From Cenococcum geophilum 1.58 (taxonomy: Eukaryota; Ascomycota; Dothideomycetes; Gloniales; Gloniaceae): a stretch of DNA of 64,000 nucleotides. Both the position numbers and the translations under genes were made by a program. Where the stretch lies: the NCBI GenBank assembly GCA_001692895.1, contig KV748265.1, forward strand, positions 248,001 to 312,000, written 5' to 3'. Positions 3,180 to 41,145 of this stretch are shown piece after piece; within the stretch, counting starts at the first letter, position 1, and every line of letters starts with the position of its first letter. Under the pieces are notes generated by a model. The model was given only the letters and a program-made list of their open reading frames with translations. It searched no databases and was not told the DNA's origin.

Positions 3180-4709
3180 TTTAATACTATAACCGTATTA
3201 GCTGACCGCTCCTTTATACACTTAATTACACCCGAAAACTGGCCTATAAATATACCCGTTAGACCCGTTATAAACATTATAGACCGCGAATAGGACCTAT
3301 TTACATATATTACTATAGAACGCTATACCCCTAAAGAATTCTATAGCGTTATAATCGATATAGGTGCCTCTAAGAAGTCTACTATAGGTTATAGACAATA
3401 CCTTATATATAAGACTACCGTAAATAATAATACGGATATTAACACTATATAAGCTAGGGCCGTAAACGTCCAATTTGGCATTGGTTTAACCGCATTAATT
3501 AGATTAGTTGCAGTTAAGACCCTAATTAGCCTAGTTAACTTCCACATAGTAAAAGCGGACACCCCTTTTCTACTCTGTCTTGTAGATATAGACAGGTTAT
3601 AGGTTTACTACAATAATATTACGGACACCTTAACTAGCCCCGCAACTGCCCTAGAAAGTAAGTATATTACCCTACTAATTACACAACGATTTGGACACCC
3701 GTTCCTTATATAGGGAGAGACTTTACGGACCTACATTTAGGAATCTTTTGACTATAACCCATGCTACCTTACTAGTACTAAAATCCACCATTTACACCGC
3801 CGTTTCGGCTACCCGTTAGCCGAAAAGCTATATAGAGTTCTTAAACGCTCTAGATATAACAACGTTAATAGAAAGGCAATCAACCACCTGACCAAATACT
3901 GCTCTTTTTACTAGAAATACGGACGTTCCCTAGGCAGATTTAAGTTCACCCTTTATAAGGACCTTAACTTTAACCACTTAGTATACGTAGATATTATGTA
4001 TATTAACGGTAGTCCAGTATTATATATAGTTAATAAGGCAACCCGCTATTAAGCCACCCGTTAGTTGCAAAATATATCTATAAAATATACTTAGGACATT
4101 TTACGGACCTACTGGATCAACACATACCTTAGACCCCCTAAGTATATCACCTACGACGCTAGTAGGAACTTTATTAGTAAGAAATTCCAATAGTACGCTA
4201 CGGCCATAGCTATTTTAATAAAAGCCGTTCTAGTTAAGGCGCACTGGTCTGTTAGACTTATTAAGCGAGCTTACCTAGCTTTATAGAGAGCTTACTAGAT
4301 TATTACGGACGAGTGTAAGAATATCTAAAAAGAACTGGCTTTATAGATGGCCGTAAAAGCTATTAATAATACCGCTAGCCCTAACGGACTGGTACCTACC
4401 CTCTTAGTCTACGGAGCCTACCCAAGGATAAGCAAACTGGACCCTCTTGCCCCATCCGTTATAGATTGAGCAGCTATAATATGGAAGGCAATAGCCGAAA
4501 TAGTCAAATTACGGGCCAAACAAACTATTAATAACGCTCTATACTACCGTAACGGACCTAATACAACCCTAGTACACAACCTCCCGCTTAACTCTAAAGT
4601 CCTTATATGGCGTAAAAGTGGTAATTAGACTAGACCTTACCGTCTACTAGCCGTAGAAGACGAGACCTACTATGTATAGCTCCCTAGCGGACCGATAAGC
4701 TTTAGAAGC
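3180..4709 (+). pseudogene. Copia-1 protease and integrase region, RIP-decayed
   Basis: An aspartic protease signature IDIGASKKST (DTGAS in the ancestor) lies at about 3355-3385. A GAG-pre-integrase segment HHLHRRFGYPLAEKL follows at about 3785-3830. The integrase core follows, with VYVDIMYINGSPVLYIV at about 3980-4030 and an ITYDAS/NFIS segment near 4145-4180. The region ends at the Copia-2 TSD GAAGC (4705-4709). Protease-integrase placed ahead of RT is copia order. Many TAA/TAG stops prevent expression. Confidence 0.85.
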
Positions 4710-17109: not shown

Positions 17110-17850
17110 TTATCTTAATTATAGACAACTACCCATAATAACCTCTTAACAAGAAACCCCTCCCGTTATTATATTATCCGTTATCCTTATAAGCCTAAAC
17201 AATTAGGATAAATAGATTAAGGTTATTAAGTTAAAAGTAAATAACAATCGTCTCTAGAAGTATATTAACCTATTAACACCTAAGACCAATCTGCTATAGC
17301 TTAAAGAACCTATTTATGCCTTACCTAAGGATACCAATAGCTAGGGGAAGACGAAGATCGCGGACCTAGATAAGGAGGAGAAGGAGGAGCTCCGTACGCT
17401 TAAAGCCGACTATAGGGACAATATAAAGCTATACAGAAAACAGCTATTAGCTCTTAATACGTTACGCAGCCACATCCTAAGCTCCATCTCACGTACCTAC
17501 CTTATCTACACGTTTAAATACACTACCACCTATAACGTCTTAGTATCTCTTAAGAAGAGAATTACTCTAACTAACTACGCCTAAAAGCTTTAAATAGCTA
17601 CTTAATATATAAGGCTTAAGAAGGCGCCTTAGAACCAGAACTTTAAGGTCTAGTTATAAGAGTGGGAGAAGGTATACACTAAGTATAAGGGGCAAGCTCT
17701 ACCTAAGGTAGATAGTAATCGTTTAGTAAAAGACTTTATATATATAGTTAAATCTATTATACCAAGCTAGTTAGAATATTAGAAGAATAAGCTTAATAAG
17801 CGTAAGTGGGAGAAGAAGACGCTTCCTACCTTCTTCGAACTGGTTGAAAT
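17110..17850 (+). pseudogene. Copia-3 gag, N-terminal part, RIP-decayed
   Basis: + frame through TAA/TAG: an IKVIKLKVNNNRL-type start, DLDKEEKEELRTLKADYRD, then YTFKYTTTYNVLVSLKKRI and WEKKTLPTFFELVE, a fungal copia gag (UBN2-like) layout. It is interrupted at TA (17851-17852) by the Tc1 element and resumes at 21607 with a tail leading to the protease. Confidence 0.75.
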
Positions 17851-17852
17851 TA

Positions 17853-18057
17853 GTCGTTTGCAAAACGAATTAGAATCCTTAGCATGCAGATCCCCGATTT
17901 TTGCGCCCAACCTTACCTGTAAAACCGTAAGATAGCCCATTTCCACGTTTAACGCGCCTTATTGTTGACATAACTCCCTGCCGTTAGTTAGTAAGTTAAA
18001 GCCGACGTCGCCCTACTATTTACCCTATCCTGACGCGTTTCCTGGTGTTGTAGTGCC
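17853..18057 (+). repeat. Tc1 left TIR with start-codon-splitting intron
   Basis: 205 bp inverted copy of 21400-21604; all differences are transitions. It contains a consensus intron: donor GTAAGT at 17991-17996, branch CTGAC at 18030-18034, acceptor TTGTAG ending 18053, 63 bp in all. Splicing joins A17990 to TG18054-18055 and makes ATG CCC. No unspliced ATG is in frame here. Confidence 0.85.
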
Positions 18058-20299
18058 CGCGAAAAAGCCCACAAAGAAGCCCGCAAAGCAGGCCTTAAAG
18101 TTAACGCCAGCAACGTTAACGCCATTAGCAGCTCCTCCATCAGGCAGTACTCGCTCTATTAGCAATACCCTCGCTCGTTCACGTACTGCTAGTATTGCTC
18201 CTAAGGCTTCTGCTGCAAATAAACGTAGGAAGCCGTCTACTCCTCCTCCTCTAGGGCCACCTAAGCCTGGCTAGCGCGCCAAACCAACGAAGGTAACTTG
18301 GATAACTCGCATAGAGCCGCCTGTAGACCGCAGTTAGCGCGTACGGTTTCAGAATGAGGAAGTTAAGGAAGTTAAGGAGGCTACACCATATTAGGCGTTA
18401 GAGGGCTATAGCCGTTGTAGGCACTATTACGATGAAACCGAGGAGGAGGTTAAGGTGAGGAAGGAGCGTAAGAGGGATAAGCTTTATACTAGATGGGAGC
18501 GTAATATTAAGAGACTTAAGGGCCTAAATTTAAAGGTTCCGTTAGATCTGGAAAGGCTTAATTTAGGCCCTTATAGTTTAGATCTTATTAATTAGGATAA
18601 TAAGGACTTTAATATTAAAGATGCGTTAGAAGGGTAGGCTAAAGATCTACGTTAAAGCCGTTAAATTTAAGGTTAAGGTGTTTATCTTAAGCGTTAGACT
18701 AAGCGGGTAACCGTTAACTATCCTATCCACGGTTAGTTTAGGCTCTATATTAATAGTTCTAAGGTTACTACAGACTATCTAGTTAAATAGAAACGGTAGT
18801 TATATGACCTAAGCCTTGTTAAGGATGCTATTACAAATAAGATTAACTATTAACTTAGTGGTAAGATCTACACCTGGGTTAAACATCTTATAGTCGTGCA
18901 GTATATTTCTAGCCGCGGCGGACGAGCTAACTGCTCTATTAACGACTTCTCTATTAAATAGAGTGATTGCCTACTTAAAGTCGTTAATGTCTAGCAGGCG
19001 TATAACCTTAACAGCGATATTTAATTAACTTTTAAAGTTAAAATTAACTATACAGCGTTTATAAAGTTAGGAAGAAAGAGGACGGTTGTTAAAGACGTTA
19101 AGGAATCTGTTAAGATCCTATTTTCCCTACTAGTTGTCTTATAGTCTGAGAGTCCTGCTCTTATACTAGGCAAAGGCGCACCTATAAAATTACGCCTAGA
19201 GCCATTACTACAGCAGAATCTAAGCCGTTAATTAGTGTATAAGGATATCGCCAACTTCTAAGCTCGCTTAGGGAAACAGATTAAGTGTATAGATATAAAC
19301 TGTGGTAACTATCAGAACTTCTGCTATGCATTTAATAGTTAACACTACGCTATTAATGCTGCTTAGCACGAGGCCTGGGTAAATACTATTGCCTTTGGCG
19401 ACGCTTAGTACGAGAAGCCGCCCATAAAGGTTTTCCGTGCTCTTATAGTAGACGGTCCAGTTAGCCGCCTAGGTTAACAATCTTACAAACCTTTAGCGGC
19501 AGCTGAGCTTCGTATAGTAACTGACCGCATGGCTAAGCTTTAAGAACTGTAGATAGAGGCCCGTAGACGTTAATTAGAGGATAAAAAGGAAGAGAGGGAG
19601 GAGCGCTATAATAAACGATGTAAGGAACGAGAGGAGCGTCGCCGTCTAATCACCATGCAGAGATAGTAGCAGTAAATGGCAATGTTTTTATATAGCCTTA
19701 ATTAGCAGCTGCCTACGTATTCTTAATACCACGCCGGCCCTTCCTATGCACAGTATCCGCAGAATCAAGTGCCTCATTTGCCACCGTAGCAGCTTTAACC
19801 GCCTCTACCGCCGCCTACTTAACTGCCTATTTAGCCTTAAATCCAAGCTGCTGCTCCTACTATCAGCCCTCCACCGCCGCCGCCTCCTGCCCCTACACGC
19901 AATGTTAACAATCACCCACGCTTAAGTCCTATATTAGTTAATAAAGAGGATACGGATACTATTTAGTGTCTATTTATCTAGAAGCTAGAAAGGACACATA
20001 ATGCCGTAACACGAGAGAAACTAAAATAGTTTAGGGACATTATATTGGAACAACAGTGGAGTCTAGATAATCTACGTGCTATAGAAAACGAAAATTCACG
20101 CAAGTTTCGTAGGGCTTTGGAGTTAGGTGCCGCTAACGGCTTCGTTAGTAATATAGCTAGCTGGCTCCGCGAGTTTAAAGTATACTACAGGTAGTAAAAG
20201 GCCGCTATGGTGGCGAATGCCCTTACGGACCTAGCAGGAGGCTTTACGCGTATATAAAAGATATATAAACTAGATAGAAGGGTATATTCTCTATAGTAA
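17990..20299 (+). pseudogene. Second Tc1-borne gene, unrecognised basic/coiled-coil protein, RIP-decayed
   Basis: Proposed as join(17990,18054..20299), about 748 codons, through many TAA/TAG stops. I do not recognise the family. The N-terminus is Lys/Pro/Ala/Ser-rich (MPAKKPTKKPAKQ) and looks nucleic-acid-binding. A middle part follows, about residues 120-480, with HYYDETEEE, RGGRANCSIND, CIDINCGNYQNFCYAF and HEAWVNTIAF segments. Then a charged coiled-coil (EDKKEEREERYNKR) and a Pro-rich stretch (SPPPPPPPAP). The C-terminal domain has RTHNAVTREKL and ENSRKFRRALELGAANGF. Intact frame survives only at 18053-18274. It could be a regulator or accessory factor of transposition; function unknown. 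The frame agrees with the A|TG start. Confidence 0.7.
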
Positions 20300-20306
20300 T
20301 TTAACA

Positions 20307-21467
20307 TTAAATAATTTCCTAGTAAGCGCCTATAGCAATATTAAAGGCCATAGTTAACTCCTCTAGCCCTTAAACCCTAACACTACGTTTAAATTGCCCT
20401 AATTGATGCCGTAAACGCTCTAGCTCAGCCTATTCTATATATATTCCTCCTACAGTATATTAAAACTGCTGCTAGGCGAAGAAATCGCACCTACTCTTGC
20501 GGATAGCTTGCTTAAGAAACTTACTATAATTACGGTGGAGTTCTTAAGTATATAGGTGCCAGCGACAGATCTATACCTTTAAGACAGCCTATATAGGCTT
20601 AATTGGATTAAAGTCTGGTAAGTATGGTGGCAGATAATAAAGGATATAGCCCTCCTCTTCAATAGCAGCTGAAATCTGCGCGTTAATGTGAACCTAAAGG
20701 TTATCTATTACGATTACTATAGTCTAATTTAAATATCGCTTACGAAGCGCAGAAAATAGGCAGCCGTATAGCCACCTAACAAAGTTATTAATATAAAAGT
20801 AGCCCTTACGGGCTTAATGGCAAACCCAGCCGTTAATTGTTGTAGCCGCGCAGATACTCCAAGTATTACCTCTTTAAAGATTACCATAATAGCACGCCTC
20901 CTTACCAACTAGAGCTCGCCCTCTCATCCGCCAGCCAGTCTTTTTGTTAAAAATAGCCTTATTAAGGAATACCATAATATCTGCCGGAAACCGTCTTATA
21001 TCATTACAATAGAGCTCCCTTAGCTGTAAGTTACGGCCCTGCGTTATATACTTAATTGCCTTTCTTAACTACCCTTCCTTCTTTAAAATATAGTGGATTG
21101 TAGAATAAGTAATAGTAAGATTATGTTCGTGATAGAGCTAGTACTAAATTTTATCTAGATATTTCTAACTGTTGTAGAGCAGGAGTTTAAGGAGAGCCTC
21201 TCTGTTAGCTTTTGCTAACGCCGCCGGTCAGCCAGTCTTCCGTATATAAGGCCTAATAGGCTAGCCGTATCGTATAAGGCAACGTTCGGTGTTATATACG
21301 GTAGCTTAACTAACGTATAGCTGTTTTATAATAGCATCTGGCCGCTAGCCTAATTTAAGTAGACGGACTATATCCGCGTGACGAGCAGGGTTAATACGAG
21401 GCACTACAATACCAGGAAACGCGTCAGGATAGGGCAAATAGCAGGGCGACGTCGGCTTCAACTTACT
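20307..21467 (-). pseudogene. Tc1-type DD34E transposase, RIP-decayed
   Basis: complement(join(20307..21403,21467)), 366 codons including stop, exactly divisible by three with the spliced A|TG start. N-terminal helix-turn-helix: INPARHADIVRLLKLG and ATVYNTERCL. Catalytic core: MVFLNKAIFN (first Asp now Asn148), VIVIDN (Asp233 kept), and YLPPYLPDFNPIKPI (the Glu of NPIE now Lys268). The spacing 233 to 268 is the DD34E of Tc1. Both losses are G-to-A. Stops replace Gln/Trp codons. A C-terminal tail EQAELERLRHQL-like ends ...EII. Transposases cut at TIRs and insert at TA. The intron mirror-images that of the left TIR (21404-21466). Confidence 0.92.
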
Positions 21468-21604
21468 GACTGATGGCAGGGAGTTATGTCGACAATAAGG
21501 CGCGTTAAACGTGGAAATGGGCTATCTCACGGTTTTATAGGTAAGGTTGGGCGCAAAAATCGGGGATCTGCATGCCAAGGATTCTAATTCGTTTTGCAAA
21601 CGAC
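21400..21604 (-). repeat. Tc1 right TIR with start-codon-splitting intron
   Basis: Inverted partner of 17853-18057. On the minus strand the donor GTAAGT is at 21466-21461 and the acceptor ends at 21404, giving a 63-bp intron. Splicing joins A (21467) to TG (21403-21402), followed by CC TCG TAT. Confidence 0.85.
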
Positions 21605-21606
21605 TA

Positions 21607-22425
21607 ATATACCGTAACTACTATCGTACAGAGCTCGCCTAGAAGGGCAAAACCTTACAAAGATCCTTCGGAGTTACCTTTAAGGACGAGTTACCGAATT
21701 TAAAGCCTAAATTAAAACCTTAATTGTTAGCAGATAAGTAAAAGAAGGAAAGGTAACCGCCGCTAGAGTACCTATACGGAAAACGTTACTACTTTAATAA
21801 GTACTGGTATATTATAGAGTCGATTTCTTACCTATTGTGGTTTAAACTAAGTAACGAAATTTAAAAGAAGGTGGATAAGAAGATTGCTAATGCGACGCCC
21901 GAAATTAAGGCTTATATTAAGCAAATTAAAAAGGACAATTAAGCTAATAAGAAGGACGATTAAGCCAATAAAAAGCCAAAGGATGGCAACTAGTAGAGCT
22001 CTTAAGAGCCCTATGGAAACTTTGTAGTTTATTATATAGGAGCTAATAATACAGCTTCCAATTATAAGCTTTGCGATAGTGTGATTCTTAACTTAGGAAC
22101 TAGCCTATATGTCTTTAACAATAGAGCCAGGTTTATTAGCGATATTAAGCCTATATTAGAACGCGTCTACATAGGCTCGCATATAGAGGAAATTATAGGC
22201 TATAGTATAGCTGTAGTAACAATTAATAACCTAAAAGGGAAGAGACAGATACAGCTCTTAGGAGCAGCCTTTATACTAGGCCTCTATACTAACTTAGTAT
22301 ATCTTAATAAGCTTAATAATAAAGGAGTCTATTAAAACAATAAAGAGAACACTCTCTTCTATAGCGATGACAAGATGTATACCTACTATAGCCGCCACTA
22401 TGGTTAGAACACTATTAAATATAAT
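21607..22425 (+). pseudogene. Copia-3 gag end and protease, RIP-decayed
   Basis: Resumes gag after the transposon (KAKLKP..., then a Lys/Asn-rich linker). The protease region VILNLGTSLYVFNN lies at 22081-22120 (ILDxGTS in relatives), followed by GSHIEEIIGYSIAVV and FILGLYTNLVYLNKL. The frame is open at 22081-22335, one of the longest surviving open stretches of the element. Confidence 0.8.
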
Positions 22426-39584: not shown

Positions 39585-39975
39585 CATGCAATTTAACTAA
39601 CTTAACACGTAATTAACCAACTTAACACACAATTAACTAACTTAACATGCAATTTGACCAACTTAATACGCAGTTAACCTACTTAATATGCAATTTAACC
39701 AACTTAATACGCAGTTGACCTACTTAATATGCAATTTAACTAACTTAATACGCAGTTAACCTACTTAATATATAATTTAACTAACTTAATACGCAGTTAA
39801 CCTACTTAATATATAATTTAACTAACTTAATACGCAGTTAACCTACTTAACATATAATTTAACTAACTCGATATGCAGTTAACCTACTTAATATATAATT
39901 TAACTAACTTAACACGCAATTAACCTACTTAATATACAATTTAACTAACTTAACATGTAGTTAACCTACTTAACA
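39585..39975. repeat. Tandem ~20-bp AT-rich repeat in LINE-3
   Basis: About 19 diverged copies of a ~20-bp unit of the type GCARTTAACCWACTTAAYAY. Pairs of units alternate (TTTAAC and GTTAACC versions), giving a 40-bp higher period. Lies upstream of ORF1. Confidence 0.88.
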
Positions 39976-40289: not shown

Positions 40290-41145
40290 CACCAGAACGG
40301 CAGCCAGCAGAGGACCGTTGCTAGAACTAGACGACCGTCGCCAGAACCAGATAACCGTTACCAGAACCAGACGACCATCGCCAGCCAGACGACCGTCGGC
40401 CAGAACCAGACGACTGTCGCCAGAACCAGACAACCGTCGCCAGCCAGCGACCGTTACCAGAACCAGACGACCGTTGCCAGAGCCAGACGACCGTCGCCAG
40501 AACCAGACGACCGTTGCCAGCGCCAGACGACCGTCGCCAGAACCAGACGACCGTCGCCAGCCAGACGCCGTTACCAGAACCAGACGACCGTTGCCAGAGC
40601 CAGACGACACCGTCGCCAGAACCAGACGACCTTTGCCAGCGCCAGACGACCGTCGCCAGAACCAGAACGACCGTCGCCAGCCAGACGACCGTTACCAGAA
40701 CCAGACGACCGTTGCCAGAGCCAGACGACCGTCGCCAGAACCAGACGACCGTTGCCAAGCGCCAGACGACCGTCGCCAGAACCAGACGACCGTCGCCAGC
40801 CAGACGACCGTTACCAGAACCAGACGACCGTTGCCAGAGCCAGACGAACCGTCGCCAAGAACCAGACGACCGTTGCCAGCGCCAGACGACCGTCGCCAGA
40901 ACCAGACACGAACCGGCCGCCAGCCAGACGACCGTTACCAGAACCAGACGACCGTTGCCAGGAGCCAGACGACCCGTCGCCAGAACCAGCACGACCGTGC
41001 CAGCGCCAGACGACCGTCGGCCAGAACCCAGACGACCGTCGCCAGCCAGACGACCGTTACCAGAACCAGACGACCGTTCCAGACCAGAGCCAGACGACCG
41101 TCGCCAGACCAGACGGACCGTCGCCAGAGCCAGACGACAACGACT
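40290..41145. repeat. GC-rich 20-bp minisatellite in LINE-3
   Basis: Units of the type CCAGAACCAGACGACCGTCG with AACC/AGCC/CGCC and GTCG/GTTG/GTTA variants, plus shorter CCAGCCAGACGACCG units. They are arranged in a higher-order repeat of about 118 bp. It has no stop codons in several frames on both strands, so long open frames here (for example 40218-41147 on +) are artefacts of the repeat. Base composition is unlike the AT-rich surroundings; almost no RIP-type change is seen. Confidence 0.95.

What the first reader, a model, noticed from the sequence alone, without database searches (positions are those of the whole stretch)
17853..21604. Tc1-type transposon whose TIRs carry an intron that creates the start codon of two convergent genes
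Seen: 205-bp TIRs, TA TSD, donor GTAAGT, branch CTGAC and acceptor TTGTAG at matching places in both TIRs (17991-18053; 21466-21404). Splicing joins A to TG, giving ATG followed by CC in both genes. With this join the transposase is exactly 366 codons in one frame, and the second gene keeps the frame of its downstream coding. No unspliced in-frame ATG exists at the start of either gene. Known: Tc1/mariner elements usually have short or simple TIRs and one intron-poor gene. Inference: the TIR works as a shared promoter, leader and start module, so excision fragments or solo TIRs cannot express protein, and splicing gates both genes equally.
Basis: partly seen in the sequence, partly recalled or inferred. 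Interest (0 to 1): 0.88.

Follow-up and report, generated by a model that had tools for sequence, protein, structure and literature searches.

The report
Transposon with splice-made shared start codon
A two-gene fungal DNA transposon, now mutated to death in this copy, carries in each of its two near-identical ends the same short intron, and removing that intron is probably what builds the start codon of both of its genes.

Summary
The element is real. It spans 17851-21606, with 207-nt terminal inverted repeats (TIRs, 95% alike) and two convergent genes: a Tc1-related transposase (Pfam DDE_3) and an unknown gene, both broken by mutation of the repeat-induced (RIP) type. At least 41 TIR places lie in the genome. 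In 22 aligned TIR ends, A|GTAAGT is kept in 21 and TAG|TG or TAG|TA in 22. TIR identity stops just after the start codon, and 21 of 22 ends have no in-frame ATG without splicing. Two sister families (transposase 37-38% identical, gene 2 26-31%) lend support. Their gene 2 can start as A|TG across an intron with other donors. Their transposase has a 60-nt leader intron ending 2 nt before a whole ATG. So a leader intron looks ancestral, and in the window's family the homogeneous TIR covers intron and start codon. Splicing is inferred; no RNA was available. Corrections: the duplicated target is AT, not TA, at two loci with empty sites; "366 codons" is not fixed; equal gating is untested. Against simple splicing: the intron body is far more conserved than the outer TIR and stays open in frame.

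The parts
17849..17850 (.). left copy of the AT target dinucleotide
   Evidence: empty sites AAAT|ATAC in 5 of 5 fetched copies; second locus
17851..21606 (.). whole element, T[A/T]GTCG...CGAC[T/A]A
17851..18057 (+). left TIR (207 nt), gene-2 side; identity ends at TGCC
17990..17990 (+). A of the split start codon of gene 2 (last base of exon 1)
   Evidence: A in 22 of 22 TIR ends
17991..18053 (+). inferred 63-nt intron in left TIR: GTAAGT...CTGAC...TTGTAG (branch A to last intron base 20 nt)
18054..20257 (+). gene 2 exon 2, starts TG CCC; inferred protein about 734 aa, no Pfam family; C-C-C-H and HEAW motifs
   Evidence: end placed at the TAA at 20255, a stop in all 7 full copies compared and close to the end of homologue P0010 (inference)
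20309..21403 (-). transposase exon 2, starts TG CCT; Pfam DDE_3; inferred 361-365 aa
21404..21466 (-). inferred 63-nt intron in right TIR
21467..21467 (-). A of the split start codon of the transposase
21400..21606 (-). right TIR (207 nt), transposase side
21607..21608 (.). right copy of the AT target dinucleotide

Best explanation
A cut-and-paste DNA transposon with a Tc1-related DD34E transposase and a second, convergent gene of unknown function. Each long TIR works as the 5' end of one gene: untranslated exon 1, a 63-nt spliceosomal intron, and an acceptor placed so that splicing joins A to TG and makes the AUG of each protein. The leader intron is ancestral to the wider family. In sister families gene 2 also starts as A|TG, while the transposase has a similar leader intron ending just before a whole ATG. 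In the window's family the near-identical TIR reaches through intron and start codon, so both genes share one start module. Shown: anatomy, conservation, target site, sister comparison, decay of the RIP type. Inferred: that splicing happens, that translation starts at A|TG, and that transcription starts in the TIR.
For: 22 of 22 TIR ends have 63 nt between A and TG/TA; GT 22/22, GTAAGT 21/22, AG 22/22, exon A 22/22; exon 2 begins TG in 16 and TA (the RIP product of TG) in 6. Identity between the TIRs ends just after TGCC, where the two proteins begin to differ. Unspliced, 21 of 22 ends have no in-frame ATG before a stop or the TIR edge, among them L039, whose transposase has only two in-frame stops in its main match. 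Sister gene 2: in 4 of 5 ends the acceptor is TTTTAG|TG or |TA (the fifth, C12, is broken before it); a donor that leaves A at the exon end is present in all 5 (A|GTT-N-GT in L050, C31, C12; A|GTTTAT in C43; A|GTGAGG in L051); none of the 4 has an in-frame unspliced ATG. Sister transposase: in 6 of 7 ends TATACTAAC plus TTTTAG or TATAG lies 2 nt before ATG (ATA in one), 60 nt after a donor GTGAGG, GTAAGG or GTAGGG; the seventh, C22, is chimeric. A third family, L052, has TACTAAC and an AG 2 nt before ATG. The last 22 nt of the window's left intron resemble the sister gene-2 intron end (11 of 15 positions before AG; 217 of 100000 shuffles reach this).
Against: No transcript was available. The whole intron is conserved, not just its signals: 3 of 63 intron columns hold a transversion against 34 of 118 outer-TIR columns (Fisher 7e-5; 5 of 1386 cells in the intron). 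That is unusual for a plain intron. It is a multiple of three long with no in-frame stop in 22 of 22, so the frame stays open unspliced; the sister L051 gene-2 intron (57 nt) is open too, and one metagenomic protein (P0006) appears to read through its whole TIR. In the L050 subfamily I chose the donor that gives A|TG; it gives 61-62 nt, and a second donor-like GTRAR 4 nt downstream in L050, C31 and C12 would leave C, A or G at the exon end, not always ATG. The branch signal CTTGAC/CTTAAC of most copies is weaker than consensus (recalled). The GTAAGT donor holds no RIP target, so its survival through RIP proves little by itself.
Confidence: 0.8

Rival explanations
1. A different intron is used: exon 1 starts at the ATG at 17884 in the outer TIR (MQIPDFCAQPY..), the donor is GTAAAA at 17919, the acceptor is the AG directly before TAAGTT, and the '63-nt intron' is coding for an N-terminal extension (..KLKPTSPCYLPYLDAFPGVVV-P) shared by both proteins.
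For: In-frame join; exon length 35 nt in 21 of 22 ends; ATG in 18 of 22, AG in 22 of 22. The 63-nt segment is open in 22 of 22 and hardly varies by transversion.
Against: Donor is GT in only 14 of 22 (GC 2, AT 5, TT 1); GC, not GT, stands in L039 and L047, and CA to TA decay of GC would create GT; the L045 copy has ACG at both ends. The putative exon has 9 of 35 columns with transversions against 3 of 63 (Fisher 0.007), many of them replacing residues (by eye). Sister transposases start at ATG right after the acceptor with no such extension.
Confidence: 0.07
2. No splicing: translation starts at a non-AUG codon upstream in the open frame, giving both proteins a shared N-terminal extension.
For: Frame open for 27-69 codons upstream in 22 of 22 ends; P0006, P0003 and P0004 are predicted ORFs reading through this segment.
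Against: No ATG in 21 of 22; stop-bounded in 21 of 22; the frame upstream of the segment is broken by indels between copies; the sister transposase has a proper ATG at the matching place.
Confidence: 0.06
3. The donor/acceptor pair is a chance pattern in dead DNA and neither gene is expressed from the TIR.
For: This copy is dead (20 and 43 in-frame stops in the two genes).
Against: The same arrangement recurs across 22 ends, and a similar one in two sister families with different donor sequences.
Confidence: 0.04

Closest known systems
Tc1-like DD34E transposons (IS630-Tc1-mariner)
   Same: Transposase has DDE_3 (1.2e-16 window; 4.5e-27 sister P0008); sister shows D, D and E with 34 residues between the last two (counted by hand).
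   Different: Inserts at AT, not TA; second conserved gene; 207-nt TIR carrying an inferred intron and start codon.
MuDR (maize Mutator)
   Same: Two convergent genes, transposase plus gene of unknown function, about 215-bp TIRs that hold the promoters (PMC3440606, passages).
   Different: Unrelated transposase; AT instead of a long target duplication (9 bp, recalled); the passages seen do not describe a start codon made by an intron in the TIR.
Tc1-OP1 and Tc1-MP1 of fungi
   Same: Fungal Tc1 elements with long TIRs (169 and 141 bp) (PMC9977792, passages).
   Different: One ORF each; the word intron does not occur in that paper's text; Tc1-OP1 excision sites TACA|..|TGTA, not AT.
ATon elements of Aedes
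   Same: TIR elements inserting at AT (PMC3422177, abstract and passages).
   Different: Non-autonomous insect elements; no evidence here of kinship.

Membership tests
Tc1/mariner superfamily | DDE_3-type transposase, DD34E or variant | tested here: met
   triad complete in sister P0008 (by hand); in the window copy and in L039 the first D reads N, and in the window copy the E reads K
Tc1/mariner superfamily | TA target site duplication | tested here: not met
   AT duplicated (or A^T insertion) at two loci with empty sites; AT at 22 of 23 ends of the family printed (one GT). Sister ends: AT at both ends of L050 and L051 and at C12 and C22, but not at C31, C43, C9, C30a, C30b, C4 (6 of 12)
Tc1/mariner superfamily | usually a single transposase gene | tested here: not met
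   gene 2 adjoins the transposase in the 7 full-length copies compared
MuDR-like elements | two convergent genes begun inside about 200-bp TIRs | tested here: met
   by sequence only, transcription start not tested
MuDR-like elements | MULE-type transposase | tested here: not met
   Pfam hit is DDE_3
Spliceosomal intron | GT-AG ends, branch site near 20 nt from acceptor, length typical of fungi | tested here: met
   (length norm recalled)
Spliceosomal intron | removal seen in RNA | not testable with these tools
   no transcript data

The most novel reading that the evidence does not exclude
A lineage of Tc1-related, two-gene transposons that inserts at AT and uses its TIRs as portable, splicing-dependent start modules: exon 1, intron and A|TG are homogenised at both ends, so the same cis unit controls two proteins and would give a start codon to any sequence that comes to lie inside a TIR. 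The strongly conserved intron may double as a transposase-binding or promoter element.
Probability: 0.4. Interest if true: 0.75.

Novelty: new variant of a known kind. Interest (0 to 1): 0.6.

Why it matters
If right, the end of a transposon serves at once as recognition site for transposition, 5' leader, intron and start codon of two genes. Expression then depends on host splicing, and the TIRs must keep both DNA and RNA signals. It also documents a Tc1-related transposase lineage that uses AT rather than TA, and a second conserved gene that may be a partner protein. Sister families give a natural series (TIR stopping before the intron, TIR covering it) for studying how long TIRs grow into genes.

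Tried and rejected
Gene 2 identity: no Pfam family (the sister copy has only a hit far below the cut-off), no convincing solved relative, no homologue found for the RIP-damaged copy, one uninterrupted homologue covering 62% of the sister copy at 88% identity (P0010). A structure model of P0010 with a two-sequence alignment had mean pLDDT 39.8, so no fold search was made. Direct repeats inside the TIR (IR/DR type): none found. In the transversion counts, L048 was first put in the wrong group and moved; L046, L055 and L048 inflate the exon rates there, so exon-versus-intron rates are not used as evidence. Two partial TIR hits (L039 right end, L046 second hit) were left out of the 22. The host was not identified; about 177 Mb would fit Cenococcum geophilum (size recalled, not shown by any search). 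Literature: ten searches listed no report of a TIR-borne intron making a start codon; the library is open-licence only, several searches listed only the top of longer result lists (15 of 811, 10 of 42, 12 of 24, 12 of 17, 1 of 2), and papers were seen as listings or passages, none read whole; one (PMC5751038) was not held.

Full report
What is there. The arms 17849-18057 and 21400-21608 are 95% complementary over 209 nt. The outermost AT on each side is the target. Of 39 other copies of the host repeat listed, five were fetched at the site and all five read ..AAAT|ATAC.. without the insert. The element in L040 has an empty counterpart in this same window (4040-4125, minus strand), again with AT once. 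So the element is 17851-21606 with AT duplicated. The sequence equally allows insertion between A and T with the TIR one base longer.

Genes. On the minus strand lies a transposase with Pfam DDE_3 (1.2e-16). On the plus strand lies a second gene of about 734 aa with no Pfam family. Both are full of stops: 20 in the transposase and 43 in gene 2. For 8 of 20 and 21 of 43 of these, at least one of six other full-length copies has CAA, CAG, TGG or CGA instead. The other 22 in gene 2 are stops in all seven copies; of the other 12 in the transposase, 10 are stops in all seven, one (20321) in all but a gapped copy, and one (20696) only in the window. Stops shared by all copies could mean saturated mutation or an ancestor already mutated. 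The dinucleotide ratios (TpA/ApT 1.74; (CpA+TpG)/(ApC+GpT) 0.68) and the stop types fit repeat-induced point mutation (inference). The transposase end is therefore not fixed, and 'exactly 366 codons' is not established. Gene 2 most likely ends with the TAA at 20255, close to the end of homologue P0010 (inference).

Family. A DNA search of the host genome (177.19 Mb, 162 contigs, unnamed) with the left TIR gave 41 places, a lower bound. The transposase search gave 114 matches, many of them distant, and gene 2 gave 48. From 20 fetched loci plus the window, 24 TIR hits were found. The 22 that reach the inner end were aligned.

The intron. In all 22, the A, the GT, the AG and the T after it are present and 63 nt apart; GTAAGT is kept in 21; the base after T is G in 16 and A in 6, as RIP of TG would give. 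TIR identity ends directly after TG CC, where transposase and gene 2 become different. Unspliced, the frame upstream is open for 27-69 codons but contains ATG in only 1 of 22, and there apparently by a C-to-T change. L039, with two in-frame stops in its main transposase match and TpA/ApT 1.05, has the complete set A|GTAAGT..ATAG|TG and no in-frame ATG.

Sister families. L050 (C16) and L051 (C5) carry the same pair of convergent genes: transposase 38% and 37% identical, gene 2 31% and 26%. Their TIRs are alike over only 101 and 106 nt, stopping just before the intron. At the gene-2 end, 4 of 5 copies have TTTTAG|TG or |TA, the fifth being broken; the exon ends in A before GTT-N-GT in L050, C31 and C12 (GTTTAT in C43), and before GTGAGG in L051. 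These introns would be 61 (L050), 62 (C31), 62 (C43) and 57 nt (L051). The free base in GTT-N-GT is the fourth intron base, which is little constrained in introns (recalled). A second possible donor, GTRAR, lies 4 nt downstream in L050, C31 and C12; it would leave C, A and G at the exon end, so the A|TG reading in that subfamily rests on my choice of donor. At the transposase end, 6 of 7 copies have GTGAGG, GTAAGG or GTAGGG, TATACTAAC and TTTTAG or TATAG, with ATG (once ATA) 2 nt later and an intron of 60 nt; the seventh, C22, is chimeric. A third family, L052, has TATACTAAC and an AG two bases before the transposase ATG, and no gene 2 was found in that locus. The end of the window's left intron matches the sister gene-2 intron at 11 of 15 positions before AG (217 of 100000 shuffles reach that). 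I read this as one ancestral leader intron, kept with A|TG in gene 2, and carried to both genes where the TIR is homogeneous through the start codon. Whether the TIR grew inward or the sister TIRs decayed is open.

Results against. The intron body is too well conserved for a plain intron: 3 of 63 columns hold a transversion against 34 of 118 in the outer TIR (Fisher 7e-5); it has no indel in 22 ends, is a multiple of three long and has no in-frame stop. The L051 gene-2 intron is open in frame as well. Metagenome proteins P0003, P0004 and P0006 are predicted through this segment, P0006 apparently through the whole TIR, though callers made for prokaryotes do not model introns (general knowledge). 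Two coding rivals were therefore considered. An upstream ATG exon spliced at GTAAAA is in frame with the segment, but its donor is GC in L039 and L047 and lost in six others, its ATG is missing at both L045 ends, and its columns vary more. Non-AUG initiation without splicing cannot be excluded but does not explain the sister families. A further role of the inner TIR (binding site, promoter) would account for the conservation and is untested; no direct repeat of the IR/DR kind was found.

Known relatives. MuDR shows the same plan with an unrelated transposase: two convergent genes and about 215-bp TIRs with promoters (PMC3440606, passages). Fungal Tc1 elements with 141- and 169-bp TIRs are known (PMC9977792, passages). 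AT-specific TIR elements are known from Aedes as non-autonomous ATons (PMC3422177, abstract and passages). By sequence the transposase is Tc1-related, but the element fails the TA rule, so I do not file it as an ordinary Tc1/mariner member.

Verdict. Anatomy confirmed with corrections. Splice-made shared start codon likely (0.8) but unproven without RNA. Gating and solo-TIR claims untested.

Noticed in passing
L039 (G000:C40:336500-345500), 991-2386: A short, much less RIP-mutated copy that keeps the transposase and left TIR but has lost gene 2 and the inner part of the right TIR.
   Followed up: partly
window 4040-4125 (within 3689-4482): Uninterrupted copy of the repeat into which the L040 element is inserted; it served as the second empty site.
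   Followed up: yes
window 40308-41138: Tandem array, 20/40/79-nt period (CAGACGACCGTTGCCAGAAC), in the GC-richest 2-kb block; the only place with ORFs of 150 aa or more on both strands.
   Followed up: no
window 39613-39973: 41-nt tandem repeat, 8.8 copies, just before the 40308 array.
   Followed up: no
L051 3255-3368 and 7157-7275: Inverted, C-run-rich sequences lie on both sides of the sister element, with about 250 nt extra on the right, as if it were nested in another TIR element.
   Followed up: no
P0009 / P0010 / P0001: Gene 2 proteins share a C-x4-C-x6-C...H motif, then HEAW and GPVxR, and a glutamine/proline-rich stretch; no Pfam family matches.
   Followed up: partly
TIR ATG at window 17884 (and the outer ATG of sister TIRs): An upstream ATG with a short ORF lies in the outer TIR of most copies; it would burden translation unless transcription starts downstream of it.
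   Followed up: partly
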